From positions 496,001 through 560,000 of the forward strand of contig NZ_VKKG01000002.1 of NCBI RefSeq assembly GCF_007197885.1: DNA of 64,000 nt. The letters are read 5' to 3'. Of the stretch, positions 25,506 to 42,827 are shown in pieces. This DNA comes from Tessaracoccus rhinocerotis (GTDB lineage: Bacteria > Actinomycetota > Actinomycetes > Propionibacteriales > Propionibacteriaceae). The notes beneath the pieces were generated by a model. That model ran no database searches. It was not told the origin of the DNA and worked only from the letters and a program-made list of their open reading frames with translations. Both the position numbers and the translations under genes were made by a program. The first letter of the stretch is position 1. Each line of letters opens with the position of its first letter.

Positions 25506-26483
25506 TCAGCTGAAGCGGACCATGTTGTTGAAGACCTCCTTGGTGACGGTGCGGTAGCCGGTCCCGGCGCGCTCGATCACGTCAGCGGTCACGAAGGTGC
25601 GGCAGCCGTTGCGGCCGGTGAGGTCCGTGTCGCACTCGGTGCGCCACTGGCGCCCGTCGCTGCTCCACGTGGCCGTGCCCTGGTAGACGCCGTTGCCGGC
25701 CAGCGGGTTGCCTGCCCAGGCCGCGCGGGGGGCAGGCTTGTAGGTCAGGTTGTTGAAGTACCAACCCGACTTGTTGACGTAGCGGCCACCCGCATAGATC
25801 ACCTGGGTGGCCCAGATCTCTGTCTCGCAGCGGTCGATGGTGGAGGAATACGTCCCGCAGTCGGTGGCCCACTGGCGGCCGTTCTTGCTCCAGCGGCCCT
25901 CGGTCAAGTAGATGTCCACGTTCGAGCCGTCCTGGCCGGTGCCCGGAGAGGTGGAGCCGCCACCTGCAGCGGGACGGAGGTTGGCGCACTGGTCCTCAAG
26001 GTTGCCGTCGGCGGTGTTGCCGGTGCCCGTTGGGGCCGGGGTGTTGGACTTGCACTGGATGTTTCCGCCGACGCGGTTGTTGTTGAGGACCTTGGCGCCG
26101 GAGCGGTTGCTGAACAGCTGGATGTCGCCGTCGACGCGGTTCGCGGACAGAGTGATGGCGCCGCCCTGCTCGAGCTGGATGTTGCCTTCCACCCGGCTGT
26201 TACTGACGGCGACCGAGCGGTGGCCCTGGCTCTGGATGTTGCCGCCGACGGTGACGTTGTTGGCCGAGAGGGTGGCATTCGACCCGAGTTCGACGTTGCC
26301 GTCGATGCTGGTTCCGCTGAGGGTGCAGGACGCACCGGAGGGGACGATCACGTTGCCGTCGACGTGGGTCGCGCCGATGCTGCCGCGACAGGTTCTGTCG
26401 TCGGCGGAGGCTGTTGGGGCTGCGAGGGCGAGGCCGCCGATCGCCAGTGCCGCGCTGGCCGTGACGGCGAGGAGACGCTTCAT
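25506..26483 (-). CDS. Secreted beta-repeat protein with C-terminal GRQW/FNN double-repeat domain
   Basis: A 325-residue protein with a signal peptide (KRLLAVTASAALAIGGLALA, cleavage near ASA-DD). Residues about 40-160 hold six or seven short repeats of the form (V/I)(D/E/G)GN(V/I)xx spaced about 20 residues, a parallel beta-helix-like or polymer-forming pattern, closed by a Cys-containing segment (NIQCK ... EDQC). A Gly/Ser linker follows. Residues about 189-325 form the domain shared with the DNase at 34.4 kb and the lyase at 39 kb: two repeats, each GRQW-x-T-x-C-x8/9-C ... W-x-FNN. The function is unknown; extracellular binding or a structural role is inferred. ATG 26483 follows AAGG. Confidence 0.85.
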   Translation of the reverse strand: MKRLLAVTASAALAIGGLALAAPTASADDRTCRGSIGATHVDGNVIVPSGASCTLSGTSIDGNVELGSNATLSANNVTVGGNIQSQGHRSVAVSNSRVEGNIQLEQGGAITLSANRVDGDIQLFSNRSGAKVLNNNRVGGNIQCKSNTPAPTGTGNTADGNLEDQCANLRPAAGGGSTSPGTGQDGSNVDIYLTEGRWSKNGRQWATDCGTYSSTIDRCETEIWATQVIYAGGRYVNKSGWYFNNLTYKPAPRAAWAGNPLAGNGVYQGTATWSSDGRQWRTECDTDLTGRNGCRTFVTADVIERAGTGYRTVTKEVFNNMVRFS

Positions 26484-26569
26484 CGTGTTCTGCCTTTCGT
26501 TGGGGGGACCGTTGGTACAGATCCAACCGGCCGCAGATGAGGCCTCGATGTGGGGTTGGTTAGAGAGTT

Positions 26570-27382
26570 CTAATGCGCGGTGAAGGTCGCGATCGTGACC
26601 TGGAGCGTGACCTCGCCGGCGGGCACCCGGGCGGGGGTGGAGTGGAAGGCGTTCGGCCCCATCCCGACCAGGGCGGTGGCCTCTTCCTCGTCCAGCCGGA
26701 GCAGACGTCGGACCTCGGTGCGTGCGACCGGCCGAAGCAGGTCCCGGAGCTGGTTGGTGACCCCCTCCAGCTTGTCGGCGCCGACGTCCAGCAGGTCGTG
26801 CGCACGCCGCAGCTCCACCAGGTGTTCGGGGCCCGGGACCACCACTACGAGCAGGCCACCGGGGCGCAGCACCCGGGCGAACTCGGCGGCGTTGCGGGGG
26901 GCGAACACGCACAGCACCGCGTCCACCGAGGCGTCCGCCAGTGGCAGCCCGGCCCAGGTGTCGGCGACGGCGGCGGCCATCCGCGGGTGGGCCCTGGCGG
27001 CCCGGCGGGCGGCCGCGGGGGAGACGTCCGTCGCCAGGCCGAGGGACCTCGGGGAGGCGTCGAGGGCGCGGGCCAGGTAGTGGCCGGTGCCCGCACCCAC
27101 CTCGAGGAGTCGTTCCCGGCCGGCGACGGCGTCTGCCACCGGTTCGCTGACCGGCGAGTAGTGGCCGGAGGCCAGGAACCGCTCCCGGGCTGCCAGCATC
27201 GCCGGGGTGTCGGCGTTGGCCGGAGCGGCGCGCCCCAGCAGGTTCACGTGGCCCTGCCGTGCGACGTCGAAGCCGTGGCCCGACTCGCAGCCCAGCACGG
27301 AGCCCGCCACCGCCATCGTTCCGCGACAGTTCGGGCACGCGAGCCACCCCGCGACCCGGCGAAGTGCCTCAGTCGGCGGCAC
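26570..27382 (-). CDS. RlmA-type 23S rRNA (guanine-N1) methyltransferase-like protein
   Basis: A 270-residue SAM-dependent methyltransferase. The N-terminus has the zinc-type motif CPNC ... C-x4-H followed by FDVARQGHVNLL, then LEVGAGTGHYLARAL as the SAM site; this matches the RlmA(I)/RlmA(II)-TlrB family that methylates G745 or G748 of 23S rRNA. Position specificity is unknown. GTG 27382 is chosen because GAGGAAG lies six bases upstream and a later start would remove the zinc site. It overlaps the SURF1 gene by 14 bases. Confidence 0.85.
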   Translation of the reverse strand: MPPTEALRRVAGWLACPNCRGTMAVAGSVLGCESGHGFDVARQGHVNLLGRAAPANADTPAMLAARERFLASGHYSPVSEPVADAVAGRERLLEVGAGTGHYLARALDASPRSLGLATDVSPAAARRAARAHPRMAAAVADTWAGLPLADASVDAVLCVFAPRNAAEFARVLRPGGLLVVVVPGPEHLVELRRAHDLLDVGADKLEGVTNQLRDLLRPVARTEVRRLLRLDEEEATALVGMGPNAFHSTPARVPAGEVTLQVTIATFTAH

Positions 27383-28178
27383 TGGTGACTTCCTCGGCCT
27401 CCCGCTCGGTCCTGCGCGCCCGGGCCTCGGCCAGGCGGGCGCGCTTCTCGGCCCGCTGCCGGGCCTTCTTCCGGTCCTGCAGGTCGGCACGGATCAGCAC
27501 CCCGATGCCGATGAGGGCGATCCCGCCGAACGCGAACCACTGCAGCGCGTAGGAGAAGTGGTTGCCCTCGTCGAGGGTGGGCGGCTCCATGGGCACCAGG
27601 GCCTCCCCGTTCGCCGGATCGGAGGTGGCGAGGATCACGTAGCCGGGCAGGAGGACTCGTCCCAAGGAGGCGCCGATCGCCTCCGAGTTGATGAGCCGCA
27701 CCTTGAAGTCGTGGGGGACCACGGCGGTCTCGTCGCCCTGCTCATCCCGGTGGACGTAGCCCATGACGGCCACCTCGCCCGTGGGCGGTTCGGGCAGTAC
27801 CTCCGTGTCCGGCTGGCCGGCCTGGCGTGCGATGAAGCCGCGGTCCACGAGCACCGAGTCGCCCTCGAGCGTCTCGAACACCGCCGCGACCTCGATCCCG
27901 GCGGAGTCGTCGTAGTTGCGGTAGCGCACCTGGTACTGCTCGCCGGTGTAGCTGCCGGTGAGTTCGACCCGCTGCCACTGCTCGTCGTCGGCGATCGGGG
28001 AACCCATCACCTCGCGGTAGGGCACCGGTGCCAGGCCCTCGTTCGCCACGACGGCGCTGTTGCCCTCGCGACGCTGCTCCAGCCGGTCCAGCTGCCACTC
28101 GCCGAGCTTCACGCACGCGAATGCAACGAGGCTGAGGAACACCGCGAGGGCCACCCAGCGCAGGATCATCTTCTTCAC
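27369..28178 (-). CDS. SURF1 family cytochrome oxidase biogenesis protein
   Basis: A 269-residue protein with a membrane span near each end (residues about 4-20 and 215-235) and a large outside domain between, the SURF1 layout. Family motifs LGEWQLDRLEQRR, NYDDSAGIEV and the final YALQWFAFGGIALIG are visible. It assists heme A insertion into cytochrome oxidase, fitting ctaA and ctaB elsewhere in the window. The GTG start at 28178 overlaps the DUF3099 stop (GTGA). Confidence 0.9.
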   Translation of the reverse strand: MKKMILRWVALAVFLSLVAFACVKLGEWQLDRLEQRREGNSAVVANEGLAPVPYREVMGSPIADDEQWQRVELTGSYTGEQYQVRYRNYDDSAGIEVAAVFETLEGDSVLVDRGFIARQAGQPDTEVLPEPPTGEVAVMGYVHRDEQGDETAVVPHDFKVRLINSEAIGASLGRVLLPGYVILATSDPANGEALVPMEPPTLDEGNHFSYALQWFAFGGIALIGIGVLIRADLQDRKKARQRAEKRARLAEARARRTEREAEEVTSAAD

Positions 28179-28495
28179 TCGTCGTCCTCCACGACGCCCT
28201 GGATCACTTCGGAGGGGGGCAGGGCGATCCGGTCCTCGTCGACCTCCGGGGCCAGGGGCGGCGGCCGGTGGTCGGAGTTGTTGGCCATCAGCACGGCGAC
28301 CATCGGCAGGAACGCCGCCGCCAGCAGCGTCACCACCTTCCACCAGCCGGGGACGACCAGGAACGCGAAGAAGCACGCGGTCCTGATGCTCATCGTGATG
28401 AAGTAGCGACGTTCGCGCTCGTCCACGTCCAGCGTCCGGCTACGCGCAGCACTGGTGATGAGCTGCGAGTCCGAAGCGTGCCGTGAGAATGCCAT
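28175..28495 (-). CDS. DUF3099 family small membrane protein
   Basis: A 106-residue protein with two membrane spans (about 36-52 and 55-72) and an acidic C-terminal tail. The ITSAARSRTLDVDERERRYFITMSIRT segment is the DUF3099 hallmark. Function unknown; its place beside fabG is standard in Actinobacteria. ATG 28495; it heads DUF3099-SURF1-rlmA, with translational coupling to SURF1. Confidence 0.88.
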   Translation of the reverse strand: MAFSRHASDSQLITSAARSRTLDVDERERRYFITMSIRTACFFAFLVVPGWWKVVTLLAAAFLPMVAVLMANNSDHRPPPLAPEVDEDRIALPPSEVIQGVVEDDE

Positions 28496-28504
28496 GGTCT
28501 GTCC

Positions 28505-28510
28505 AGCATA
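28505..28510 (-). promoter_or_regulatory. -10 box of the DUF3099-SURF1 operon
   Basis: On the minus strand TATGCT ends nine bases before ATG 28495, giving a leaderless or nearly leaderless message. It is divergent from the fabG promoter 12 bases away. Confidence 0.5.
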
Positions 28511-28522
28511 TGCCCGTTGCGG

Positions 28523-28528
28523 TAGGTT
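28523..28528 (+). promoter_or_regulatory. -10 box, leaderless promoter of fabG
   Basis: TAGGTT ends six bases before GTG 28535, with no ribosome site. Confidence 0.65.
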
Positions 28529-28534
28529 GACGCC

Positions 28535-29245
28535 GTGGAAGAATCTCGCGTTGTCCTCGTAACCGGCGGCTCCAAGGGAATCGGCCGTGTGATCGCCGAA
28601 CGGTTCCGCGACGCTGGCCACCGCGTCGCGGCAACCTACCGTTCCGGGGGAGTGCCCGACGGCGTCCTCGGCCTGCAGTGCGACATCACCGACCAGGCCC
28701 AGGTGGACGCCGCCTTCGAGCAGGTCGAGTCCGAGCTCGGACCCGTGGAGGTCCTCGTCGCCAACGCCGGCGTCACGAAGGACACCCTCATCCTGCGAAT
28801 GAGCGACGAGGACTGGGACCAGGTGATCGACACCAACCTGACCGGCACCTTCCGCGTGGTGCGGCGCGCCGCCCGCCCCATGACGCGGGCCCGGTTCGGG
28901 CGCATCATAATGATCTCGTCGGTCGTGGGCTTCATCGGGTCCCCGGGGCAGTTGAACTACGCCGCCTCCAAGTCGGGGCTCGTGGGCATGGCCCGCAGCC
29001 TCACCCGCGAGCTCGGCAGCCGCAACGTCACCGCCAACGTGATCGCGCCCGGCTTCATCGAGACCGACATGACCGCCGTCCTGCCCGAGGAGACCATCAA
29101 GGGCTACAAGGCCCGTATCCCCTCGGGCCGGCTCGGCAGCTCCGACGACGTCGCCGCGGCGGCGCTCTTCCTCGCGGGCGACGGCGCGGGCTACATCTCC
29201 GGTGCCGTGCTGCCCGTCGACGGCGGCCTCGGCATGGGTCACTGA
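28535..29245 (+). CDS. fabG: 3-oxoacyl-[ACP] reductase FabG
   Basis: A 236-residue short-chain dehydrogenase reducing beta-ketoacyl-ACP in fatty acid synthesis. NADPH loop TGGSKGIG, NAG motif VANAGVT, catalytic Ser in MISSVVGFIG and Tyr-x3-Lys in NYAASKSG are intact. It is followed 16 bases later by fabI, the same pairing as mabA-inhA in mycobacteria. Confidence 0.94.
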   Translation: MEESRVVLVTGGSKGIGRVIAERFRDAGHRVAATYRSGGVPDGVLGLQCDITDQAQVDAAFEQVESELGPVEVLVANAGVTKDTLILRMSDEDWDQVIDTNLTGTFRVVRRAARPMTRARFGRIIMISSVVGFIGSPGQLNYAASKSGLVGMARSLTRELGSRNVTANVIAPGFIETDMTAVLPEETIKGYKARIPSGRLGSSDDVAAAALFLAGDGAGYISGAVLPVDGGLGMGH

Positions 29246-29261
29246 CAACCAGAAAGAAGAC

Positions 29262-30035
29262 ATGGGAATCCTCGAAGGCAAGAACGTCCTCGTCACCGGC
29301 GTGACGATGAACTCCTCCATCGCCTACGCGACCGCCGAGATCGCACAGCGGGAGGGGGCCAACGTCGTCGTGTCCGCCGCCGGGCGCGCCGTCAGCCTCG
29401 CGCGGCGCGTCGTGGCGCGCATGGAGCAGCCGCTGCCCCTGGTCGAGCTTGACGTGACAGACCCCGAACACCTCGCCAACCTGCCCGAGACCCTGGGCGA
29501 GCACCTCGAGGGCGGACTGGACGGCATCGTCCACTCCATCGCGTTCGCCGATCCCGCCAAGGCCCTCGGCGGCGCGTTCCTGTCCACGGACTGGGAGTCG
29601 GTCTCCAAGGCCATCGAGATCTCCGCCTACTCGCTGCAGAGCATCACCATGGCCGCGAAGCCGATGCTGAACACCGGCGCGAGCATCGTCGGCCTCACCT
29701 TCGACGCCCGTGTCTCGTGGCCGTCGTACGACTGGATGGGAGTGGCGAAGGCTGCGCTGGAGTCCACGTCGCGCTACCTGGCCCGCTACCTCGGCCCCGA
29801 CGGCATCCGCTCCAACCTGGTGGCGGCGGGCCCCATCGACACCATGGCGAAGAAGGCCATCCCGGGCTCCGCGGACTTCAACGCCATCTGGTCCGAGCGG
29901 GCGCCGCTGAAGTGGGACGCCACCGACGCCGTGCCCGCCGGCAAGGCGGTCGTCGCGCTGCTGTCCGACTGGTTCCCCGCCACCACCGGCGAGATGATCC
30001 ACGTCGACGGCGGGCTGCATTCCACCGGGGCCTGA
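29262..30035 (+). CDS. fabI: Enoyl-[ACP] reductase (FabI/InhA type)
   Basis: A 257-residue enoyl reductase of the SDR superfamily, completing the elongation cycle. The FabI-specific VTGVTMNSSIAYATAEIAQ dinucleotide loop, HSIAFADP and the catalytic Tyr-x6-Lys in SYDWMGVAKAALES are present. Length and sequence lie between FabI and mycobacterial InhA; a mycolic-acid role is not implied. ATG 29262 follows an AGAAAGAAG purine stretch. Confidence 0.93.
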   Translation: MGILEGKNVLVTGVTMNSSIAYATAEIAQREGANVVVSAAGRAVSLARRVVARMEQPLPLVELDVTDPEHLANLPETLGEHLEGGLDGIVHSIAFADPAKALGGAFLSTDWESVSKAIEISAYSLQSITMAAKPMLNTGASIVGLTFDARVSWPSYDWMGVAKAALESTSRYLARYLGPDGIRSNLVAAGPIDTMAKKAIPGSADFNAIWSERAPLKWDATDAVPAGKAVVALLSDWFPATTGEMIHVDGGLHSTGA

Positions 30036-30058
30036 CCACGCCCCACCCACCACCCCGG

Positions 30059-30064
30059 TAGGGT
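30059..30064 (+). promoter_or_regulatory. -10 box, leaderless promoter of the 30-kb ABC gene
   Basis: TAGGGT ends seven bases before ATG 30072; no ribosome site. Confidence 0.65.
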
Positions 30065-30071
30065 TGGTGGC

Positions 30072-30858
<787 letters not shown>

Positions 30859-30866
<8 letters not shown>

Positions 30867-31344
30867 CTTCCTTGCGTGGTTCAGGGACTTCGCGTGGGCC
30901 GGATGGGGCATCCTCGCGGTGGGCCTGGCCGCGCTCGAGATGCTCACCATGGACCTCACCCTGCTGATGCTGGCCTCCGGCGCACTGGCCGGTGGTCTCA
31001 CCGCGCTGGTGGTGCCCGGCCTGTGGTGGCTGCAGGTCATCGTCGCCGTCGTCGTGGCGGTGCTGACGCTGCTGTTGCTGCGTCCCACCCTGCTGGACCG
31101 GGTCCGCAACGCGCCGGGATACCGCTCGTCCCTCGAGAGCCTGGTGGGCTCGTCGGGCCGCGCCACCGCGCAGATCGACGCCCGTGGCGGCGAGGCCAAG
31201 GTCTCAGGGCAGGTCTGGGACGCCCGGTCCTTCGACCCTGACGTCACCATCGCAGAAGGCCACGAGATCGAGGTCTACGGTCTCGACGGCGTCACCCTCA
31301 TCGTCTATCCCGTGAGGCCGCAGGGCCAGCTCGGGAGCAACTGA
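30859..31344 (+). CDS. NfeD-like membrane protein
   Basis: A 161-residue protein with three hydrophobic spans (about 15-80) then a soluble OB-fold-like domain (SLVGSSGRATAQIDARGGEAKVSGQVWDARS), the NfeD layout. NfeD proteins work with SPFH/stomatin proteins in membrane microdomains, and an SPFH gene follows 14 bases later. It overlaps the ABC gene by 8 bases, suggesting one operon. Confidence 0.88.
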
Positions 31345-31358
31345 CAAACGGAGGAACA

Positions 31359-32534
31359 ATGGAGTTCATCGCAATCGGCATCGCCATCGTCGTGGTGCTG
31401 TTCCTGGTCATGATGCTGAAGATCGTCCGGCAGCAGCAGGTGGGGCTCGTCGAGAGGCTGGGCAAGTTCCGGCGTCGGCTGGACCCGGGGCCGCACCTGG
31501 TGATCCCGGTGTTCGACCGCATCGCCTACACGATGGACATGCGCGAGGAGGTGGTCCCGTTCCCGCCACAGGGCGTGATCACCGAGGACAACCTCATGGT
31601 CTCCATCGACTCGGTGATCTACTTCCAGATCGTCGATCCGGTGCGGGCCGCCTACGAGGCGCAGAACTACCACAACGCCATCGAGCAGCTCACCATGACG
31701 ACGCTGCGCAACATCATCGGCGGCATGGACCTCGAGGCGGCGCTCACCTCCCGCGAGGAGATCAACCAGAAGCTGCGGATGGTGCTCGACGAGGCCACGG
31801 GCAAGTGGGGGATCAAGGTCAACCGCGTCGAACTGCGCGCCATCGACCCGCCTCCCACCATCCGCGATGCCATGGAGAAGGGTGCCCGCGCCGAGCGGGA
31901 CAAGCGAGCCGCGATCCTGCTGGCCGAGGGCCAGCGGCAGTCGCAGATCCTGCAGGCCGGCGGTGACCGGGAGTCCGCCATCCTGCGGGCACAGGGCGAC
32001 CGCGAGGCGCAGGTGCTGCGGGCGCAGGCGGACCGGCAGGCGCAGATGCTGCGCGCCGAGGGCGAGGCACAGGCCATCACCACCGTCTTCGGGGCGATCC
32101 ACGCGGGCCAGCCCGACCAGGGTCTGCTGGCCTACCAGTACATGCAGATGCTGCCGCGACTGGCGTCGGGCGACTCCAACAAGATGTGGATCATTCCGAG
32201 CGAGTTGAACGACGCGCTCAAGGGACTCGGCCAGGTCTCGGGGGCCGACGACGTGCGCGACTACATCTCCAAGGTGGGCCAGAACTTCGAGGCCCCCGAA
32301 CGCATCGACGTGCAGGCCGAGATCGCTGCCCAGCGGGACCAGGACAAGGAACGGTCCAACGCCACGATGCAGCAGGCGATCGCCGAGGCGCAGGCGATGG
32401 AACAAAACCCGGTGGGTCGGCGGCCACGCGGCAACGGCCGGGCCGAGCTGGACCGGCCGCAGTCCGAGGCGCCCGTGGAACAGCCGGTCAGCGAGGTCCG
32501 GGACCCGGAGCCGGAGCCAGACGACCAGCGATGA
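31359..32534 (+). CDS. SPFH/band-7 (stomatin, QmcA-like) membrane protein
   Basis: A 391-residue protein with an N-terminal span (about 3-20), the SPFH domain (IVRQQQVGLVERLGKF to about residue 170) and a long helical region. Residues 178-243 consist of six 11-residue repeats beginning AERDK, AEGQR, AGGDR, AQGDR, AQADR and AEGEA, a right-handed coiled-coil pattern. The C-terminal 60 residues are charged and Pro-rich. With NfeD it probably forms an oligomeric membrane scaffold. The 3' end overlaps the convergent symporter gene by 47 bases. Confidence 0.92.
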   Translation: MEFIAIGIAIVVVLFLVMMLKIVRQQQVGLVERLGKFRRRLDPGPHLVIPVFDRIAYTMDMREEVVPFPPQGVITEDNLMVSIDSVIYFQIVDPVRAAYEAQNYHNAIEQLTMTTLRNIIGGMDLEAALTSREEINQKLRMVLDEATGKWGIKVNRVELRAIDPPPTIRDAMEKGARAERDKRAAILLAEGQRQSQILQAGGDRESAILRAQGDREAQVLRAQADRQAQMLRAEGEAQAITTVFGAIHAGQPDQGLLAYQYMQMLPRLASGDSNKMWIIPSELNDALKGLGQVSGADDVRDYISKVGQNFEAPERIDVQAEIAAQRDQDKERSNATMQQAIAEAQAMEQNPVGRRPRGNGRAELDRPQSEAPVEQPVSEVRDPEPEPDDQR

Positions 32535-33465: not shown

Positions 33466-33472
33466 GTGAGCA

Positions 33473-34442: not shown

Positions 34443-34835
34443 TCAGCTGAAGCGGACGATGTTGTTGAAGACCTCCTTGGTCACGGTGCGGTAGGTGTTG
34501 CCGTTGCGTTCGATGACCGTGGCGGTCACGTAGCTGCGGCAGCCGTTGCCGCCCACGGCGGGGGTGTCGCACTCGGTGCGCCACTGCCTGCCGTCGGCTG
34601 CGGTCCAGCGTCCGGTGTGGCCCAGGGGGTTGTCGGCCCAGGCGCTGCGGGGTGAGCCGAGGTAGGTGAGGTTGTTGAAGGTCCAGCCGTTGTGCTGGTA
34701 GTAGGCGCCGTTCCAGGTGCCGATGGTGGTGCCCCAGATGTAGGTGAAGCAGCGCACGGTGATCGAGTAGGGCTCGCACACCGTCATCCAGCGGCGTCCG
34801 TTGACGTCGTGGAAACCGGGTGTCTCGTAGAGGTC
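34443..34835 (-). repeat. Left copy of a 393-bp inverted repeat
   Basis: This 3' end of the DNase gene matches 42435-42827 (3' end of the lyase gene) in inverted orientation, with three mismatches counted by eye over 393 bases (about 99 %). Similarity drops in the acidic linker just upstream and stops at the stop codon. It encodes the shared C-terminal domain. Confidence 0.92.
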
Positions 34836-37178
34836 CCCCTCGGGCTCCTCCGTGGGCTCCTCCGACGGCTCCTCGGTGGGCTCCTCGGTCGGCTCGGTCG
34901 TCTCGCCCAGCTGCAGGCCGATGATCACGGGGTCGTGGTCCGATGAGCGGTAGGGGTCTGCCGCCCAGAGAGCGTCCTCGTTGTCGGCCTTGAACTCCAT
35001 GGAGTAGTCGAACAGGTCCGACTCGTCGGAGTTGATGTGCCACGACGAGGTGCCGACGACGTCTGCCGCTGCGGCCTCGTTCGCGAGGCCGTAGTCGAGG
35101 TAGCCGAGCTGGCCGTCGAAGACGTAGGAGTACGCCTCGTCGCCGTTGAACCGCTTCTCGAGGTCGGTGTAGCCGGCCTCGACGAACACGTCGATCGGGT
35201 CCTCGTAGTCATAGGAGTTCAGGTCGCCCATGACGATGGTGCGGCTGGAACCCTGGCCGGTGGGGTCGGTCGCCAGCCACTCCACGATGTCCTGCGCGGC
35301 CTCCACCCTGGTGAGGTTGCAGTTGCCGGAGCCATCGCCGGTGTCCGGATCCTCCGGCAGGCAGTCAGAACCCTTCGACTTGAGGTGGTTGACGTTGAGG
35401 CTCACCAGTTCGCCGGAGGCGATGTGGCGGAACGTCTGGAGCAGGCTCGGCCGGTTCTTGCCGTCGTTGAAGTCGAGCGCCTCGAAGTCGCCGACCGGCT
35501 CCGCAGTGGCGGTCTTGTAGATGATGGCCTGGAAGATCTCGTCGGTGCCCACGACCCCGGTGTCGATGAAGTCGTAGGTGCCGGCGCCGACCTCGGCGTT
35601 CAGCCCGGCGACGAGGTGCGCGACCGCCGTCGGTGCGTTGTTCTCGATCTCCATCAGCCCGACGACGTCGGCATCGATCTCCGCGAGGGCCGCGACGATC
35701 TTGGCCTGCTGGCGCTCCAGCTCGGTGGAGGTGACGGCCCCGCGCTCGTTCAGCGTCGTGAAGTAGTTGAGCACGTTGAAGGAGGTGATCTTGAAGTCGC
35801 CGCCGACCTCGGGGACCGCCGGACGCTCGTTGACGGCCGTGTAGTCGGCCCCCTGCGTCGGCTGGACCTTGTAGGTGTTGTTGCGGTAGCTCATGATGCC
35901 GGTCAGGTTGGTCACCTTGTCGCCGCCGCGGAAGTAGTTGTCGCGGGCGAACGGCTCACCGTTGGGGTGGATGGCGGGGGAGACGTTCTGGGAGTTGAAG
36001 CCGTCGTCGGCGATCACGCGGTTCGCCGCGTTCTGCGCCGCGATCGCCTGGGCCGCCGGGCCGGGCTCGGCGACCCCGGTGGGGGTCCACTGCCGGTCGA
36101 GACCGTAGACGATCTCCCCGAAGCGGTCGAAGTTGAAGAACTCGAGGATCGTCAGGTCCTGCGGGAATGTCACGTACATGCCCTCGTAGCTCTCGAAGTC
36201 ACCCACCGGGACGGTGAGTTCGGTGGCTGCGATCGGGTCACCCGCGGCGGCGAGCACCGTCACCGAGGTGGGGTTGAGCTGCGTCTGGCCGAAGGCCTCC
36301 ACTACCGTTCCCGCGATGCGGACCTGCTCGCCGACGGCGCGTGGCTCGGCGTCCGGGGCGTAGACGAACAGGCCGTCGCTGGTGGCGTCGTCGCCGTCGC
36401 CCTCGTCCTGGACGTAGTAGCCGTTGAACTGGCCGTTGCCCTGGAAGGTGGCGGTCACCCAGGCGTCGATCGTGACGGCCTGGTTGACGTACGGGCTCGT
36501 GTCCGTGCTGCCCTGGATCTCGCCGATCGTCAGGTCGCCCGGCTGCGGCGTCTCCGACGGCTCCTCGGTGGGCTGCGGCTCGACCAGCGGGTCGCACTGG
36601 AACGTGCCGAGCGTGGTCGCGTCATTCTGTGGCGAGGCCTCGAAGTCGACTGAGGGGTCGTAGGCGTCGGACGGGTCGTTGTCGACCGTGCAGGCCTTCT
36701 TCGTGAGGGTCATCTCGCTGGTGGCGACCTCGTTGGCGGACCAGTTCGTACCCGGGTCGACGCCGAGTTGGCCGATCGAGTCCAGTACGGCGCCGCCTCT
36801 GCTCAGCACGAGGGTGTCGTCACCGTTGTAGTTCGCGACCGCGTGCGTCGTGTCCCCGGCGGGCACGAGGGCCCACTGGGAGTTGGTGACCAAATAGTGC
36901 CCGCCGGAGGCAACACTGCCACTCAGCGCCAAGGTCGACTGGGGGCTGGTGCCGCCGTTGGAGTACAGGGTGAGCGAGTAGCCGCTCAGGTCCAGTTCGG
37001 CTGTCGTGGGGTTGTAGAGCTCCACCGCCTTGTTGTTGCTGCTGCCCTCGACGTAGACGCTGATCATCAGGTCTGCCGCCGGCGCCGCCTGGGCGGGCGA
37101 CACGGCCAGGGCGCCGAGGCCGGCCAGCGTCGTTGCGGCCGCCGCGGAGAGCGCGGCGATGCGACTGCGAAGTTTCAT
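34443..37178 (-). CDS. Secreted ExeM/NucH-type nuclease with lamin-tail domain and shared C-terminal domain
   Basis: A 911-residue extracellular protein. A signal peptide (about 1-33, ending SPAQA-AP) precedes a lamin-tail domain (about 35-160), an acidic Pro-rich linker, an OB-fold nucleic-acid-binding domain (about 205-325) and an endonuclease/exonuclease/phosphatase domain (about 463-758) with SFNVLNYF, MEIEN, NHLKSKG, MGDLNSY and SSDHDPV, the metal and catalytic motifs of ExeM/NucH DNases. A TEEP-repeat linker leads to the 131-residue GRRW/FNN double repeat (781-911). It probably degrades extracellular DNA for nutrient or biofilm use. ATG 37178 follows AGGAGAAGG; a minus-strand TAGGGT near 37214 may be the -10. 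No LPxTG or other sorting signal is present. Confidence 0.93.
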   Translation of the reverse strand: MKLRSRIAALSAAAATTLAGLGALAVSPAQAAPAADLMISVYVEGSSNNKAVELYNPTTAELDLSGYSLTLYSNGGTSPQSTLALSGSVASGGHYLVTNSQWALVPAGDTTHAVANYNGDDTLVLSRGGAVLDSIGQLGVDPGTNWSANEVATSEMTLTKKACTVDNDPSDAYDPSVDFEASPQNDATTLGTFQCDPLVEPQPTEEPSETPQPGDLTIGEIQGSTDTSPYVNQAVTIDAWVTATFQGNGQFNGYYVQDEGDGDDATSDGLFVYAPDAEPRAVGEQVRIAGTVVEAFGQTQLNPTSVTVLAAAGDPIAATELTVPVGDFESYEGMYVTFPQDLTILEFFNFDRFGEIVYGLDRQWTPTGVAEPGPAAQAIAAQNAANRVIADDGFNSQNVSPAIHPNGEPFARDNYFRGGDKVTNLTGIMSYRNNTYKVQPTQGADYTAVNERPAVPEVGGDFKITSFNVLNYFTTLNERGAVTSTELERQQAKIVAALAEIDADVVGLMEIENNAPTAVAHLVAGLNAEVGAGTYDFIDTGVVGTDEIFQAIIYKTATAEPVGDFEALDFNDGKNRPSLLQTFRHIASGELVSLNVNHLKSKGSDCLPEDPDTGDGSGNCNLTRVEAAQDIVEWLATDPTGQGSSRTIVMGDLNSYDYEDPIDVFVEAGYTDLEKRFNGDEAYSYVFDGQLGYLDYGLANEAAAADVVGTSSWHINSDESDLFDYSMEFKADNEDALWAADPYRSSDHDPVIIGLQLGETTEPTEEPTEEPSEEPTEEPEGDLYETPGFHDVNGRRWMTVCEPYSITVRCFTYIWGTTIGTWNGAYYQHNGWTFNNLTYLGSPRSAWADNPLGHTGRWTAADGRQWRTECDTPAVGGNGCRSYVTATVIERNGNTYRTVTKEVFNNIVRFS

Positions 37179-37294
37179 GGAACACCTTCTCCTAGGGATC
37201 TGTCGCGACCCTACGGAGCCGCGGTTAATTCTGGGTCCAGAGAAGGTGAACGCTACCTTTCGGAGGGGGGTTCGTCAGGTGAACGTGGGGAACG

Positions 37295-37894
37295 TCACTC
37301 CGCGGCGGCGGCGGGGGTGGCGACGGCCTTGGGGGAGACCGGCCAGTCGTCGGGGTAGCGGTAGGCGAGCTCCGCAACCTGCTCGTCAAGCTTCCGGCGT
37401 GCACGCGACGAGAGCCGGTCACCGAAGACGGTGCCGTTGAGGTGGTCGGTCTCGTGCTGGTAGCAGCGGGCGAGCAGTCCGGTGCCGAGCAGGTCGACGT
37501 CGTTGCCCTCGGCGTCCTGACCGGTGCAGCGTGCCCGGTCCGGGCGCGCGACGCTCTGGTAGCCGCCGGGCCAGGACAGGCAGCCCTCGTCGCTGGCGTC
37601 AAGATTGCGGTCCTTGCCCGTGGGCAGCTCGACGACGGGGTTGCACACCACGCCACGCTCGATCACGTCGTCGTCGTTGGGGCACTCGTAGACGAACACC
37701 GACAGGCCGACGCCCACCTGCGTGGCGGCCAGCCCGACCCCCTCTGCGGCCCGCATGGTGGCGAACATGTCACGGACCAGCTCGTGCAGCTCCTCGCCGA
37801 ACTCGGTCACGGGCTGCGTCTGCTCATGCATCACCGGGGTGCCCCAGCGGGTGATCGGACGAATCTTGCCGCCAGTGGTCAGGTCCAGGGCCAT
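37295..37894 (-). CDS. def: Peptide deformylase
   Basis: A 199-residue metallo-deformylase removing the formyl group from nascent proteins. Motif 1 GVGLAATQVG, motif 2 EGCLSWPG (Cys metal ligand) and motif 3 QHETDHLNG (His ligands and catalytic Glu) are complete. ATG 37894 has AGGAGA upstream. It is divergent from xerC. The 116-bp gap downstream, before the DNase gene start on the same strand, holds that gene's promoter. Confidence 0.96.
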   Translation of the reverse strand: MALDLTTGGKIRPITRWGTPVMHEQTQPVTEFGEELHELVRDMFATMRAAEGVGLAATQVGVGLSVFVYECPNDDDVIERGVVCNPVVELPTGKDRNLDASDEGCLSWPGGYQSVARPDRARCTGQDAEGNDVDLLGTGLLARCYQHETDHLNGTVFGDRLSSRARRKLDEQVAELAYRYPDDWPVSPKAVATPAAAAE

Positions 37895-37948
37895 TTGGGT
37901 TCTCCTCGCCGGGGGTGTGTCTGCAGTGAACCAGTATGCCGTGTCCGG

Positions 37949-37954
37949 CACACT
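37949..37954 (+). promoter_or_regulatory. Weak -10 box of xerC
   Basis: CACACT ends seven bases before ATG 37962, the leaderless spacing seen elsewhere, though the hexamer is poor. Confidence 0.35.
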
Positions 37955-37961
37955 GGGGCCC

Positions 37962-38867
37962 ATGGCGAAGGACGACCACGGGTGGCGGGCGGTGATCGAG
38001 GAGTACCGCACGCACCTCTCGTCGGATCGCGGCCTGTCCGAGCACACGGTGCGCGCCTACGTCTCGGACCTCACCGCCCTGGCTGGTTTCGTCGGACGCC
38101 CCCTGTCCGAGGTCACGCTCCAGGTGCTCCGGGCATGGCTCTCCGACCTGGCCGAGGCCGGTGCCGCAGCCTCCACGATCCAGCGCCGCGTGGCCTGCGT
38201 GCGGGGGTTCTTCGCGTGGGCGACGAAGGTGGAGGGACTGCTCGAGGTGGACCCGGCCTCCCGGCTGCGGGCACCGAAGCGGCAGCGGAGGCTGCCGCGG
38301 GTGCCCTCGGCGACGGCGGTGGGGGAGAGCCTCGCCGCCACCCAGGCCAGGGTGTCGGAAGGTGAGGGTCCGGTGGCGGCACGCGACCTCGCCCTCTTGG
38401 AGTTGCTCTACTCGAGCGGTCTGCGCGTCTCAGAACTGTGCGGCATTCGCGTCCGGGACGTCGACACGGAACGCGGCACCATCCGGGTGCTCGGCAAGGG
38501 TGGCAAGGAGCGGAGCGTGCCGGTGGGTGCGCCGGCGCGTCGCGCCCTCGCCGCCTGGCTGGCAGCCCGTCCGGAGCTCGCCGGACCGCAGAGCCCGGAC
38601 CTCGTCTTCCTCGGGGCGCGCGGGGGTGCGCTCGACCCGCGGGTGGCGCGTCGGGTCGTCCACGAAGCGACCCGTGCAGGCGGAGCCGAGGTGGCACCCC
38701 ACGGCCTGCGCCACGCCATGGCCACGCACCTGTTGGAGGGCGGCGCGGACCTGCGCTCCGTGCAGGAGATGCTCGGCCACGCGTCGGTCGCCACCACACA
38801 GGTGTACACGCACGTCACCTCGCAGCGGCTGCGGGAGGCCTTCCGCCAGGCGCATCCCCGCGCCTGA
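37962..38867 (+). CDS. xerC: Tyrosine recombinase XerC
   Basis: A 301-residue site-specific recombinase for chromosome dimer resolution. The N-terminal SAM-like domain (about 8-95) is followed by the catalytic domain with Arg155 (SGLRVSEL), Lys179 (GKGGKER), His247 and Arg250 (APHGLRHAMATH), His273 (LGHAS) and Tyr282. Its place between def and the M23-rpsB cluster is that of the chromosomal xerC of Actinobacteria, so it is not treated as a phage integrase. Confidence 0.94.
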   Translation: MAKDDHGWRAVIEEYRTHLSSDRGLSEHTVRAYVSDLTALAGFVGRPLSEVTLQVLRAWLSDLAEAGAAASTIQRRVACVRGFFAWATKVEGLLEVDPASRLRAPKRQRRLPRVPSATAVGESLAATQARVSEGEGPVAARDLALLELLYSSGLRVSELCGIRVRDVDTERGTIRVLGKGGKERSVPVGAPARRALAAWLAARPELAGPQSPDLVFLGARGGALDPRVARRVVHEATRAGGAEVAPHGLRHAMATHLLEGGADLRSVQEMLGHASVATTQVYTHVTSQRLREAFRQAHPRA

Positions 38868-38871
38868 GCCC

Positions 38872-38901
38872 TTGACCGATCGACAGGTCTCGCGATAGGT
38901 T
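38872..38901 (+). promoter_or_regulatory. Promoter of the lyase gene
   Basis: -35 TTGACC (38872-38877), 18-base spacer, -10 TAGGTT (38896-38901): the best sigma-70-type promoter in the window. It begins 4 bases after the xerC stop. The expected start point lies inside the following palindrome. Confidence 0.75.
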
Positions 38902-38904
38902 GCG

Positions 38905-38918
38905 AGAAAGCGCTTTCA
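38905..38918. promoter_or_regulatory. LacI-family-type operator palindrome
   Basis: AGAAAGCGCTTTCA contains a perfect 12-bp palindrome GAAAGCGCTTTC (38906-38917) and differs by one base from the LacI/CcpA-type consensus TGAAAGCGCTTTCA. It begins 4 bases after the -10, covering the start point, a typical repressor position. Confidence 0.65.
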
Positions 38919-38960
38919 CGAGTTCTCGGCAACGTAGCCGAACCAACCCGGAGGTCGACG

Positions 38961-41900
38961 ATGAACCCACGTACTCCCACCCCGACGCGGAGGGTCCTGA
39001 CCCTCGCACTCGCGGTGGCCATGGCCCTCGCACTGGCCGTCACCGGGCTGGGGGTGGATGCCCCTGCGCGGGCGGAGGAGTCACCCGACGTCCTCAACCC
39101 CAGCGCCATGCCGATCGGTCCGATCACCTCCGACACCCAGGTGGGCCGCTACACAATCCGGGCCACGGAGGCCGCCGCGGTGGAGGTGGATGCGCAGGAA
39201 CGCACCGGCGGCGAGCACGTGTTCACCCAGCGCCTCAAGCTGAACGGTGGTGGGACCCCGGAGCGGCGCTCCGTTGCGTTCACCACCTTCGGGCCAGCAG
39301 TCCTGAACGCCTACGCGCTCAGCGCCAGCGCCAGCGCGGACCGCCAGTTGGCGCTCTACACGCAGGACGGCACCCTCGTCGAGAGCCTCCCCGCCTACGG
39401 TGCGCCCACCGACATCCCGCTCGCCCGGTTCACCGTGCCTTCCGCCGGCAGCTACTACGTCGCGTCCCCGTCCTCCGGGGTCAACATCTTCCACCTGGAA
39501 CTGGTCGACGGCGTGGCCCCCGAGCGCCCCGCCTGGGACCTTGTCGCCGCGCCGGTGGTCACCGGCGTGCACCAGGACGGACCCGACCTCCTGGTCGACT
39601 TCGACGGGCTCGTGGGCTTCGACGGCGCGGACATCGCCACCGCCACGCTCTACGACAGCGGCGGCACCGCCGTCGCTACTGGCATGTCCGGGGCCCAGGC
39701 CGCGTCCGGAACCATTGCGCTCACGCCGAGCACCTCCGGTGACTACGCGGTCGAGGTGGCGCTGCAGCGCACCGACGAGGACCTTCCGAAGGTCTCCCCG
39801 CGGGCGGACGCGCCCGGGTTCGTCCTGCCCCTCGGCGCCTCCGAGGTCCTCGCCGCCCTAACCACAGCCGTCGCCGACGGGAGCGCCACGGTCACGGTCG
39901 AGTGGGCCGCCGTGGCGGAGGCCGAGAGCTACGTCGTCGAGTTCCGTGAAAGCGGATCCACGGACTGGGGTGCGCTGGCTGCGACCACCGAAACCAGTGC
40001 CGACGTCACGGGCCTGGCCCCGGGCGACAGGATCGAGATCCGCATCATCTCGCACCGCGGTTCGGAGGCCACCTTCTCCGAGGTCCACACCGTCGAGGTC
40101 AGTGACGAGGTCGAGAGGTGGCTGGAGGCCCATGCCGGCGTGTCCAGCAACGGCACCCTGGTCCACCACGCCGACGGCTCCATGACCTTCGACATGCGCG
40201 GCAACAACGGCAAGATCGCAGACTCCGAGGACGGGTTCCACTACTACTACACGGAGATCGACCCGCTCACGGAGAACTGGACGCTCTCGGCCAGGTTCAC
40301 CGTCGACGACGCCTCCGGCAAGGACAACCAGTCGGGATTCGGCATCATCGCGGTGGACACCTTCGAGCCAAACAACCGGGACGCGCGCTACTTCAACAGC
40401 GTGGGCACCATGTCCGCCAAGTACGTCCGAGACCTCGGCGAATCCGTCGACACCCGCTACGGCACCCCCGGCAGCAAGGTGGTCACCGGCTACACCGACG
40501 GCCCCCGGGTCGCCACCCCTGCCCGGGACATGACCGGTTCGGAGCCGTTCGACTGGACCTGGCGCGACGGCCTGGCCGAAGGGGTGAACATGAACCCACC
40601 CCGCTTCGTGGACGGTGACGTCTACGAGTACACCCTGCGCAAGTCCAACACCGGTTTCCACGCCATCTGGAGCGTTGACGGCGAGCGGCACGAGATCATC
40701 ACCTACGAACCCGACCTCCTGCTGCAGCAGACGGGGGACTCCTACTACGTCGGGGTGTTCGCAGCCCGCAACATCGAGGTCAGCGTCAGCGACCTGGCCT
40801 TCAGCACCATTCACCCGGACGACGACGAGGAAGCACTGGAGCGTCCGGTCACCCGGGTGACGCCGTGGCTGACGGCCGACGTCACCCGCACCACCCCGCA
40901 CCGCAGTATCGAGGTGCCGCTGCTGTCGAACGTCCACGGCGTGGCCTCCGTCGTGGACCAGCGAGGAACCGTCATCGGCGGTCCTGTCGACCTCGAACCC
41001 GGAGCCGCCACCTCGGTGGTCGTGCCCCTCGCCGACGGCGTGAACGAGTACACCGCGACCCTCACCCCCGCACCACGCCAGGAGCAGACAGGCCTGGGCG
41101 AGTACGAGGACCTCGACTCCTACGAGCCGTTCAGCATCCCGCTGACGATCACCGTCGCCTCCTACGGGCAGCCCGGACAGTCGATCCACGTCGCTGCCGA
41201 CGGGAGCCCCGCCGGCGACGGCACGCCCGGCAGTCCGCTCGACCTGCACACCGCCGTGGCGCACGTGCAGCCCGGGCAGCAGATCGTTCTCCAGCCCGGC
41301 ACCTACCGACCGACCCGCAAGGTCACGATCGAGCGTGGCAACGACGGCACCCCCGCGCAGCCGATCGTCCTGATGTCCCGGCCGGGCAGTCGCGCCCTGC
41401 TCGACCTGTCCGGGTCACCTGACGGGGGCATCCACCTCCGGGGCGACCACTGGCACCTGTACGACCTCGAGATCACGGGATCGCGTGGATACCAGAAGCC
41501 GATGCTGATCAGCGGCCACCACAACGTCGTCGAGCGCATCGAGTCGCACCACAACGCCGACACCGGGATCCAGATCTCCGGGAACGCCGCCGAACCGCGC
41601 TCGATGTGGCCGTCGCACAACCTCGTGGTCTCGAGCGTCTCGCACAACAACGCCGACCCCCTGGCGAACGATGCGGACGGATTCGCCGCCAAGATCACCG
41701 CGGGGGAGGGCAACGTCTTCCGGCACTCGATCGCGCACCACAACGTCGACGACGGCTGGGACCTGTACGCGAAGTCGACGCAGGGACCCATCGGCGACGT
41801 GGTGGTCGAGCACTCGGTTGCCTACCGCAACGGCTGGCTCGAGGAGGCGCCCGACGTCACGGGCGAGGGAAACGGCTTCAAGCTGGGCGGTGAGAACATG

Positions 41901-42827
41901 CCGGGGGCGCACCTGCTGTCGAACTCCGTCAGCTTCGACAACGCCGGCGCCGGGGTCACCTCGAACTCCGGGCCGGACGTGATCGTTGACGACGTGACCT
42001 CGTATGCCAACGCGGGCCCCAACCTGAGGCTCTACACCTCCGCCGCGCAGACGGACTACCGGGTGCGCGGCCTGTTGTCCGCCGACGGTGGGGCCGCCGA
42101 CAGCATCGGCCTGCGGGAGCAGCCCGACGACATCACTGGCGATCCCTCCAACGTCCTGGACGGTGTCACCGCCGGCGGGGAGCCGGTGACCGACGACTGG
42201 TTCGCCAGCGTCGACCTCGACGTCGTCCCGCGGATCGCGCCGGACGGCAGCGTCGACATGCAAGGCCTGCTCGAGCTCCTCGAGCCGGGCGCCGGTGAGT
42301 GGGGTGCCCGCCTGGGAGCGCACCCATCCCCGACGGTGATGGAGCTGTACCCGCCAGTGCAGCCCGTGACGGAGGTGCCGACCCCGGAGCCGTCGCAGGA
42401 GCCCACGGAGGAGCCGACCGAGGAGCCGGATGGCGACCTCTACGAGACGCCCGGTTTCCACGACGTCAACGGACGCCGCTGGATGACGGTGTGCGAGCCC
42501 TACTCGATCACCGTGCGCTGCTTCACCTACATCTGGGGCACCACCATCGGCACCTGGAACGGCGCCTACTACCAGCACAACGGCTGGACCTTCAACAACC
42601 TCACCTACCTCGGCTCACCCCGCAGCGCCTGGGCCGACAACCCCCTGGGCCACACCGGACGCTGGACCGCAGCCGACGGCAGGCAGTGGCGCACCGAGTG
42701 CGACACCCCCGCCGTGGGCGGCAACGGCTGCCGCAGCTACGTGAGCGCCACGGTCATCGAACGCAACGGCAACACCTACCGCACCGTGACCAAGGAGGTC
42801 TTCAACAACATCGTCCGCTTCAACTGA
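38961..42827 (+). CDS. Secreted PL9-type pectate lyase-like beta-helix protein with FnIII and shared C-terminal domain
   Basis: A 1288-residue extracellular protein. A signal peptide (about 1-36, ending APARA-EE) precedes an unassigned beta-rich region, an FnIII domain (about 297-383), a concanavalin/LamG-like segment (about 393-620), a linker beta domain, and a right-handed beta-helix (about 742-1035) with family-9 polysaccharide lyase features: NDADGFAAKI (candidate Ca ligands and catalytic Lys), HHNVDDGWDLYAK and GNGFKLGGEN. A PTPEPSQEPTEEPTEEP linker leads to the 131-residue GRRW/FNN double repeat (1158-1288), nearly identical to that of the DNase. It probably cleaves an acidic polysaccharide such as pectate. 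ATG 38961 follows GGAGG. The promoter has a LacI-type operator. It separates xerC from the M23 gene. Confidence 0.88.
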   Translation: MNPRTPTPTRRVLTLALAVAMALALAVTGLGVDAPARAEESPDVLNPSAMPIGPITSDTQVGRYTIRATEAAAVEVDAQERTGGEHVFTQRLKLNGGGTPERRSVAFTTFGPAVLNAYALSASASADRQLALYTQDGTLVESLPAYGAPTDIPLARFTVPSAGSYYVASPSSGVNIFHLELVDGVAPERPAWDLVAAPVVTGVHQDGPDLLVDFDGLVGFDGADIATATLYDSGGTAVATGMSGAQAASGTIALTPSTSGDYAVEVALQRTDEDLPKVSPRADAPGFVLPLGASEVLAALTTAVADGSATVTVEWAAVAEAESYVVEFRESGSTDWGALAATTETSADVTGLAPGDRIEIRIISHRGSEATFSEVHTVEVSDEVERWLEAHAGVSSNGTLVHHADGSMTFDMRGNNGKIADSEDGFHYYYTEIDPLTENWTLSARFTVDDASGKDNQSGFGIIAVDTFEPNNRDARYFNSVGTMSAKYVRDLGESVDTRYGTPGSKVVTGYTDGPRVATPARDMTGSEPFDWTWRDGLAEGVNMNPPRFVDGDVYEYTLRKSNTGFHAIWSVDGERHEIITYEPDLLLQQTGDSYYVGVFAARNIEVSVSDLAFSTIHPDDDEEALERPVTRVTPWLTADVTRTTPHRSIEVPLLSNVHGVASVVDQRGTVIGGPVDLEPGAATSVVVPLADGVNEYTATLTPAPRQEQTGLGEYEDLDSYEPFSIPLTITVASYGQPGQSIHVAADGSPAGDGTPGSPLDLHTAVAHVQPGQQIVLQPGTYRPTRKVTIERGNDGTPAQPIVLMSRPGSRALLDLSGSPDGGIHLRGDHWHLYDLEITGSRGYQKPMLISGHHNVVERIESHHNADTGIQISGNAAEPRSMWPSHNLVVSSVSHNNADPLANDADGFAAKITAGEGNVFRHSIAHHNVDDGWDLYAKSTQGPIGDVVVEHSVAYRNGWLEEAPDVTGEGNGFKLGGENMPGAHLLSNSVSFDNAGAGVTSNSGPDVIVDDVTSYANAGPNLRLYTSAAQTDYRVRGLLSADGGAADSIGLREQPDDITGDPSNVLDGVTAGGEPVTDDWFASVDLDVVPRIAPDGSVDMQGLLELLEPGAGEWGARLGAHPSPTVMELYPPVQPVTEVPTPEPSQEPTEEPTEEPDGDLYETPGFHDVNGRRWMTVCEPYSITVRCFTYIWGTTIGTWNGAYYQHNGWTFNNLTYLGSPRSAWADNPLGHTGRWTAADGRQWRTECDTPAVGGNGCRSYVSATVIERNGNTYRTVTKEVFNNIVRFN
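42435..42827 (+). repeat. Right copy of the 393-bp inverted repeat
   Basis: See 34443-34835. Mismatches by eye lie at a third codon position near the start, one Thr/Ser codon and the final Asn/Ser codon. The stop codon is the right boundary. Confidence 0.92.

What the first reader, a model, noticed from the sequence alone, without database searches (positions are those of the whole stretch)
25506..42827. Uncharacterised C-terminal domain shared by three secreted proteins
Residues 189-325 of the 25.5-kb repeat protein, 781-911 of the DNase and 1158-1288 of the lyase end in the same module. Seen directly: it is two repeats, each GR(R/Q)W-x-T-x-C, eight or nine residues, C, then a beta-rich part with W/K-x-FNN(L/I/M). 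The first repeat ends RxAWAxNPL. Four cysteines are conserved, so two disulfides are likely. All three proteins are exported, have Pro/Glu or Gly/Ser linkers before it, and otherwise share nothing. I infer a common attachment or binding role (cell wall, polysaccharide or a sorting system); no LPxTG, SLH or CBM is present. I recall similar sequences as 'hypothetical' in other Actinobacteria, so the domain may be widespread but undescribed.
Basis: partly seen in the sequence, partly recalled or inferred. Interest (0 to 1): 0.75.

Follow-up and report, generated by a model that had tools for sequence, protein, structure and literature searches.

The report
Mass-duplicated probable cell-wall attachment domain
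Three secreted proteins in this window end in a small, undescribed two-repeat domain that the same bacterium carries in more than sixty proteins, at either end of the protein, and that most likely holds them on the outside of the cell.

Summary
The ~130-residue module of the DNase, the lyase-like protein and the 325-aa protein has 67 matches in this 3.55-Mb genome. It is an internal duplication with four conserved cysteines and a confident all-beta model (pLDDT 95). No convincing Pfam, NCBIfam or PDB match was found. It sits at the extreme C-terminus (42 of 62) or just after the signal peptide (17 of 62), so a C-terminal cleavage signal is unlikely. N-terminal copies include peptidoglycan enzymes; C-terminal hosts are glycosidases, a subtilase, a DNase, phosphatases and others. 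Diverged relatives in another family sit on an amidase, a SpoIID protein and a third secreted protein. Within the genus 15 of 39 genomes carry it, with 1-66 copies. In two orthologous enzymes, 30 of 37 tails without it end in a short LPxTG-like tag lacking a membrane segment; on one gene tree the module state needs six changes. I conclude it is a new, lineage-expanded, probably non-covalent wall/surface retention domain. Its ligand is unknown and binding is untested.

The parts
25506..26483 (-). 325-aa exported protein: signal peptide, beta-solenoid-like repeats, Gly/Ser linker, C-terminal module
   Evidence: only a sub-threshold beta-solenoid Pfam match, residues 53-90
25509..25919 (-). module (residues 189-325), two repeats, runs to the last residue before the stop
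34443..37178 (-). 911-aa ExeM/NucH-type extracellular DNase with N-terminal lamin-tail domain and C-terminal module
   Evidence: NF033681 E 2.8e-172; PF00932 E 3.5e-15
34836..34907 (-). Pro/Glu/Thr-rich linker between nuclease core and module
   Evidence: by eye
34626..34835 (-). DNase module, repeat 1 (module residues 1-70)
34446..34625 (-). DNase module, repeat 2 (module residues 71-130)
38961..42827 (+). 1288-aa exported right-handed beta-helix (pectate-lyase-like) protein with C-terminal module
   Evidence: PF13229 E 6.3e-07; PelX-like NF041903 below its cut-off
42348..42434 (+). Pro/Glu/Thr-rich linker before the module
   Evidence: by eye
42435..42644 (+). lyase module, repeat 1
42645..42824 (+). 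lyase module, repeat 2; the stretch 42435-42827 is near-identical in DNA to 34443-34835 on the other strand
   Evidence: 99.7% identity over the HMM-delimited module, 64% in the 150 bases upstream, no evident similarity after the stop

Best explanation
The module is a new family of two-repeat beta domains, probably disulfide-stabilised, that hold exported proteins at the cell surface, most likely by binding non-covalently to a constituent of the cell wall (peptidoglycan or a wall glycopolymer). Shown: lineage-specific expansion, internal duplication, confident common fold model, placement mostly at mature termini, fusion to both peptidoglycan enzymes and exoenzymes, association with wall-type enzymes also in diverged relatives, and repeated exchange with an LPxTG-like tail at the same place in orthologues. 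Inferred: that the common denominator is wall binding, that two disulfides (module C20-C29 and C89-C99) form after Sec export, that the ancestral use was to target peptidoglycan enzymes, and that the domain was later copied onto the ends of secreted depolymerases so that the cell keeps them.
For: (1) 66 distinct frames in one genome; of 62 full or nearly full modules 42 end within 3 residues of the C-terminus, 17 begin within the first 70 residues after a predicted signal peptide, 3 are elsewhere. (2) N-terminal-type proteins include YkuD x2, NlpC/P60, M15_4 and DPBB lytic transglycosylase (5 of 17, each E<=6.4e-8), against 0 of 40 C-terminal-type proteins scanned (35 of them listed only to E 1e-5), Fisher p 0.0015; one of the 3 others has M23. 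(3) In 37 proteins of carriers with few copies, Pfam finds YkuD 2, M23 2 and one each of glucosaminidase, transglycosylase, DPBB, NlpC/P60 and M15_4. (4) Diverged modules in family f29 lie at or near the C-terminus of three neighbouring genes; of 8 such proteins from three genomes, 3 have Amidase_2, 2 SpoIID, 3 no match over a cut-off. They keep all four cysteines and the model has the same strand order, pLDDT 91. (5) Of 55 orthologue tails (25 ExeM, 30 5'-nucleotidase): 18 module, 30 PGLPxTG or like tag, 7 neither, 0 both. (6) On the nucleotidase tree the module state needs 6 changes, at least 5 forced by starred branches. (7) Hosts act on unrelated substrates, and some have their own CBMs.
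Against: There is no binding, localisation or expression datum. The tag used as yardstick is itself untested and lacks the membrane helix of a proper sorting signal, so it cannot prove surface anchoring. Twelve of 17 N-terminal-type proteins are not clear peptidoglycan enzymes (GSDH, LRR, C5-epimerase, M14, unknown). Three of ten ExeM tails in carriers have neither module nor tag, and two of 13 carrier nucleotidases have the tag. The module state on the nucleotidase tree is still clustered (as few changes in 9 of 500 shuffles). The fold gives no functional hint: best Foldseek E in PDB 0.077 and 0.051, in BFVD 0.0078, an SSB with TM-score 0.24. No phage record carries it, as a wall-binding domain of lysins might.
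Confidence: 0.65

Rival explanations
1. A docking module: it binds another surface protein (scaffold, S-layer-like or pilus component) rather than a wall glycan, as dockerins do.
For: Use on many exported proteins at either terminus, and many-or-none copy numbers per genome, would fit a single receptor.
Against: Fusion to peptidoglycan enzymes in two separate families points to the wall itself. No cognate scaffold was looked for, because genome-wide co-occurrence could not be computed here.
Confidence: 0.13
2. A carbohydrate-binding module that targets the enzymes to insoluble plant, algal or host polysaccharide.
For: Many C-terminal hosts are glycosidases (GH10, 13, 20, 30, 35, 43, 53, 59, 101, 127); the module is beta-rich and aromatic-rich.
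Against: The same module is on a DNase, a 5'-nucleotidase, a subtilase, CAP proteins and L,D-transpeptidases; some hosts already have CBM4_9, CBM6, CBM9 or F5/8C domains.
Confidence: 0.12
3. A sorting or export signal read by a dedicated machinery and perhaps cleaved off, in the manner of PEP-CTERM or type IX C-terminal domains.
For: Dozens of copies per genome at the exact C-terminus; sporadic presence within a genus.
Against: 17 of 62 copies follow the signal peptide; the module is a large folded domain by prediction; one protein has two copies in tandem.
Confidence: 0.07
4. A stability or export-folding cap with no ligand.
For: Disulfides and a compact fold could protect termini.
Against: Conservation well beyond cysteines (23 invariant columns in 60 paralogues) and the exchange with an LPxTG-like tag.
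Confidence: 0.03

Closest known systems
WXL domain (PF13731) of Lactobacillales/Bacillales
   Same: Large C-terminal module (last ~120-190 residues) shared by many secreted proteins, non-covalent retention on peptidoglycan (passages of PMC5817068)
   Different: No such Pfam match in any of 60 modules; here also N-terminal; other lineage
CWB2 repeats of Clostridium difficile surface proteins (PF04122)
   Same: Anchoring module shared by a family of surface proteins that include an amidase and proteases (abstract of PMC4973711; passage of PMC5817068)
   Different: CWB2 needs three tandem repeats with a conserved Ile-Leu-Leu; here one two-repeat beta module with four cysteines; no such Pfam match
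LPXTG sortase signal (PF00746)
   Same: An LPxTG-like peptide occupies the same C-terminal place in orthologues without the module
   Different: The module is a folded domain without the pentapeptide; the orthologues' tag itself has no hydrophobic or basic tail
PEP-CTERM, GlyGly-CTERM, MYXO-CTERM sorting tags (titles and abstract starts in the listing)
   Same: Many paralogous C-terminal copies with sporadic distribution
   Different: Those are short signals, with a membrane helix as I recall; here ~130 residues, folded by prediction, at either terminus

Membership tests
Any described Pfam/NCBIfam domain | profile match above curated cut-off | tested here: not met
   60 modules: best Pfam E 0.0051 in 1 member (Thaumatin), best NCBIfam E 0.017 in 1 member
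Known wall-binding domains (LysM, SH3 types, SPOR, CW-7, CWB2, SLH, WXL, ChW; Table 1 of PMC5817068, seen in passages) | match to the family's Pfam model | tested here: not met
   none among the 13 families matched at E<=1 by any of 60 modules
Wall-binding domains, as a kind | demonstrated binding to wall material | not testable with these tools
   no experiment
LPXTG sorting signal | LPxTG, hydrophobic helix, basic tail | tested here: not met
   C-terminal-type modules end in an xNN(I/L/M)VxF-like strand plus at most 3 residues
C-terminal sorting domain (PEP-CTERM-like) | strictly C-terminal | tested here: not met
   17 of 62 modules N-terminal
Any solved fold | Foldseek E <= 0.001 to a PDB chain | tested here: not met
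   0 matches for either model, best E 0.077 and 0.051; PDB sequence profile search 0 hits at E<=10
CAZy carbohydrate-binding modules without a Pfam model | match to a dbCAN/CAZy profile | not testable with these tools
   no dbCAN library on hand
ExeM/NucH DNase (host protein) | NF033681 above its cut-off of 300 bits | tested here: met
   574.4 bits

The most novel reading that the evidence does not exclude
One clade of Propionibacteriaceae has two interchangeable surface-address systems for its secretome: a membrane-free C-terminal RPGLPxTG-x peptide, possibly ligated by a sortase after release, and this domain of apparently new fold that does the same job non-covalently by binding a lineage-specific wall polymer. 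Individual genes have switched between them many times, and the domain spreads by copying its exact coding segment between genes.
Probability: 0.3. Interest if true: 0.87.

Novelty: new variant of a known kind. Interest (0 to 1): 0.7.

Why it matters
A domain found in 66 frames of one genome, yet without a match in Pfam, NCBIfam or the PDB, probably decides where these bacteria keep polysaccharidases, nucleases and wall enzymes. If it is a wall-binding module it gives a new handle for surface display in Actinobacteria, helps explain the surface biology of Tessaracoccus/Arachnia, and makes the function of an odd membrane-free LPxTG-like tag testable through natural swaps in orthologues.

Tried and rejected
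Mobile-element or phage origin: no match in phages or plasmids (tblastn with one module, E<=0.1) or viral contigs. Known fold: Foldseek against PDB with two models and BFVD with one gives mostly SSB/OB-like matches with TM-scores of about 0.2-0.3; I do not read these as homology. Linked dedicated sortase: a sortase gene lies between module genes in own contig C1 (L052:7994-8671), but sortases are in 39 of 39 genus genomes, so I dropped it. Rarity in the phylum: a profile that includes the diverged modules found only the own genome (1 of 396), but 10 candidates per genome were scored and it is not shown whether the f29 genomes were in that sample, so it says little. One search also scored 10 and 21 per genome; up to 107. 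Genome-wide profiling of partner genes was not possible. More swaps: of 20 tagged proteins compared with module proteins, 9 had a hit; 4 of these are the ExeM and nucleotidase cases, 5 are weaker (33-41% identity), 11 had none. Papers: 8 searches showed, in their listings, nothing on this domain or on a PGLPxTG terminal tag in bacteria; the library lacks most subscription papers. Read: passages of PMC6160142 (it notes that three proposed C. acnes extracellular enzymes lack a typical LPxTG) and PMC5817068, abstract and outline of PMC4973711.

Rows dropped: 2 of 62 modules (one frameshifted, one partial) left out of alignment A1; 8 of 66 frames not scanned with Pfam (L049, L051, L055:2862, L042:12345, L036:13393, L041:12537, L041:13874, L031:1314; mostly fragments or partial modules); 4 of 41 frames of low-copy carriers, all running off their contigs, left out, and 4 partial modules of 17 in G191 not fetched; of 34 genomes with a nucleotidase match 30 tails were read.
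Full report
WHAT IS THERE. Each ends in a module of about 130 residues. Pfam and NCBIfam cover host parts (lamin-tail domain plus ExeM/NucH nuclease in the 911-aa protein; right-handed beta-helix in the 1288-aa protein; only a weak beta-solenoid hint in the 325-aa protein) and list nothing over the modules at E<=1. A scan of 60 paralogous modules gives only scattered matches, in 1-2 members each, best E 0.0051 in Pfam and 0.017 in NCBIfam. A profile search of PDB sequences gives none at E<=10.

HOW MANY. The own genome (3.55 Mb, 49 contigs) holds 67 matches to the DNase module at E<=1. I fetched their surroundings and found 66 distinct frames, with 62 modules full or nearly full. Forty-two end 1-3 residues before the stop codon, 17 begin within the first 70 residues after a predicted signal peptide, and 3 are elsewhere (second of a tandem pair, one 68 residues from the end, one frameshifted). 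A home-made signal-peptide score of 66; the rest include fragments, cut frames and doubtful starts. By eye, C-terminal modules mostly follow Pro/Thr/Glu/Ser-rich linkers, and many N-terminal ones are followed by such linkers.

REPEAT, CYSTEINES, FOLD. The two halves of the module are homologous (hhalign score 80.4, E 4.9e-17; best of 100 shuffled controls at the same setting 17.2). Fifty-nine of 60 modules have exactly four cysteines, the other three; their places across predicted hairpins suggest C20-C29 and C89-C99 pairs, which is inference since no coordinates were measured. AlphaFold2 on the 60-row alignment gives pLDDT 95.0, pTM 0.83, with four strands in each half. No PDB chain matches at E<=0.001. 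Five modules are only about 100 residues long; in the two of them displayed (L035:13987-14310, L033:1243-1563) a gap falls at corresponding places of both halves.

WHAT CARRIES IT. N-terminal type (17 proteins, all scanned): L,D-transpeptidases (2), NlpC/P60, M15 carboxypeptidase, DPBB lytic transglycosylase, M14 carboxypeptidase, sugar dehydrogenases (2), C5-epimerase, LRR, beta-helix, fn3, CarboxypepD_reg and 4 without a match. C-terminal type (40 scanned, including the three of the window and one partial module): GH10 (2), GH13 pullulanase, GH20 (2), GH30, GH35, GH43 (5), GH53, GH59, GH101, GH127, GHL10, subtilase, 5'-nucleotidase, metallophosphatases (2), CAP proteins (3), DUF4185, the DNase and beta-helix protein of the window, PKD/VWA and others or unknowns. 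Clear peptidoglycan enzymes are 5 of 17 against 0 of 40 (Fisher p 0.0015). The lists stop at E 1e-5; the five N-terminal cases all pass that limit. Related copies are not independent, so the p value is only a guide.

WHERE IT OCCURS. In the genus 15 of 39 genomes carry it, with 66, 64, 59, 53, 48, 48, 43, 42, 38, 37, 29, 17, 16, 11 and 1 copies; 24 have none, some of these incomplete. In the family it is in 14 of 197 sampled genomes, all of this genus; by the handles, 38 of the 197 are of this genus, leaving 159 of other genera without a match. In the class it is in 6 of 394 including the own genome: four genomes of family f29 with three neighbouring matches each and one fragment at a contig end in f22. 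A scan of named genomes found 304 encoding stretches; the 79 loci kept are labelled Tessaracoccus, uncultured Arachnia, Propionibacterium or Propionibacteriaceae. The searches scored only 21 and 10 candidates per genome.

CARRIERS WITH FEW COPIES. From G167, G188, G191 and G124 I read 41 module frames. In G167 and G188 together 14 of 27 are N-terminal by my reading of that list. Of 37 scanned, the most shared families were LRR (3), C5-epimerase, polysaccharide deacetylase, YkuD, M23 and CAP (2 each); glucosaminidase, transglycosylase, DPBB, NlpC/P60 and M15_4 occur once each.

DIVERGED RELATIVES. In f29 the modules (22-41% identical to the first of them) lie at or near the C-terminus of three neighbouring genes. 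Of 8 proteins scanned from three of the four genomes, 3 have Amidase_2, 2 SpoIID, and 3 no match over a cut-off. They keep all four cysteines but lack the FNN motifs, and the model of one has the same strand order, pLDDT 91.3; it too has no PDB match at E<=0.001. A tree of 62 own modules with these eight as outgroup puts the modules of all five clear N-terminal peptidoglycan enzymes outside a 50-row branch (support 99/95) that holds 40 of 42 C-terminal copies. Columns are few, the outgroup branches are long and the f29 modules fall in two groups, so the order is suggestive only.

THE SWAP. I compared tails of two orthologous enzymes across the genus. ExeM, 25 tails: carriers 7 module, 0 tag, 3 neither; non-carriers 8 tag, 5 tag-like, 2 neither. 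5'-nucleotidase, 30 tails: carriers 11 module, 2 tag; non-carriers 11 tag, 4 tag-like, 2 neither. The tag is PGLPxTG with a few further residues and then the stop, mostly after a Pro-rich linker and without an evident hydrophobic segment. No tail has both. I defined 'tag-like' after seeing the tails. On the nucleotidase gene tree the module state needs 6 changes, at least 5 forced by starred branches; 9 of 500 shuffles need as few, so it is also clustered. This is a gene tree, so transfer between species is not excluded. A DNA pattern for RPGLPxTG has 22 matches in the 15 carriers and 99 in the 24 non-carriers (58 of them in five genomes), against 1 for the reversed pattern in all 39. Of 30 loci read, 19 show it within 12 residues of a stop behind at least 90 open codons. 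Carriers with few copies and the own genome keep the tag on some proteins, so the two coexist.

SPREAD. DNase and lyase modules are 99.7% identical in DNA, with 64% identity in the 150 bases before and no evident similarity after the stop. The module was thus copied between neighbouring genes with edges near its own borders, by gene conversion or duplication (inference). A second such pair is in L046 (96.6%).

MECHANISM. Shown: family, repeat, fold model, placement, hosts, distribution, swap. Inferred: the proteins are exported by Sec, the module oxidises, and it binds something common at the surface. Peptidoglycan enzymes among the N-terminal hosts and in f29, and the exchange with an LPxTG-like tail in exoenzymes, make the wall the best candidate (0.65). 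Rivals are a protein scaffold (0.13), substrate binding (0.12), a sorting signal (0.07) and a ligand-free cap (0.03).

KNOWN OR NOT. It would work like WXL, CWB2 or SLH modules but is a member of none by profile. Eight paper searches showed no description; the library lacks most subscription papers. I rate it a new variant of a known kind: a new domain family with an apparently new fold, serving what is probably a known job.

Noticed in passing
L186-L211, L213-L241, L242-L271: A C-terminal peptide RPGLPxTG plus often one residue, then stop, ends many secreted proteins of the genus after Pro-rich linkers, with no evident membrane helix or basic tail; it resembles a minimal sortase substrate (that comparison is recalled, not tested).
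   Followed up: partly
L321:1-4001 (own contig C45:56500-60500): The own genome keeps one RPGLPSTGN-ending protein, phosphatase-like by eye only, so tag and module coexist.
   Followed up: partly
window 34443-34835 and 42435-42827: Near-identical inverted module copies about 8 kb apart on opposite strands, with unrelated flanks: recent conversion or duplication.
   Followed up: yes
L035:10614-10946, L035:13987-14310, L036:7952-8287, L033:1243-1563, L068:4570-4887: Compact modules of about 100 residues; in the two displayed the gap falls at corresponding places of both repeats.
   Followed up: partly
L051:1599-1787, L055:2862-3032, L041:13874-14638: Module fragments or a frameshifted copy in the own genome, described only.
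   Followed up: no
L179, L180, L181, L182: Three neighbouring genes in another family (amidase, SpoIID protein, third secreted protein) each with a diverged module; a candidate wall-remodelling gene group.
   Followed up: partly
L052:7994-8671: A sortase gene between module genes; sortases occur in all 39 genus genomes, so probably not specific.
   Followed up: partly
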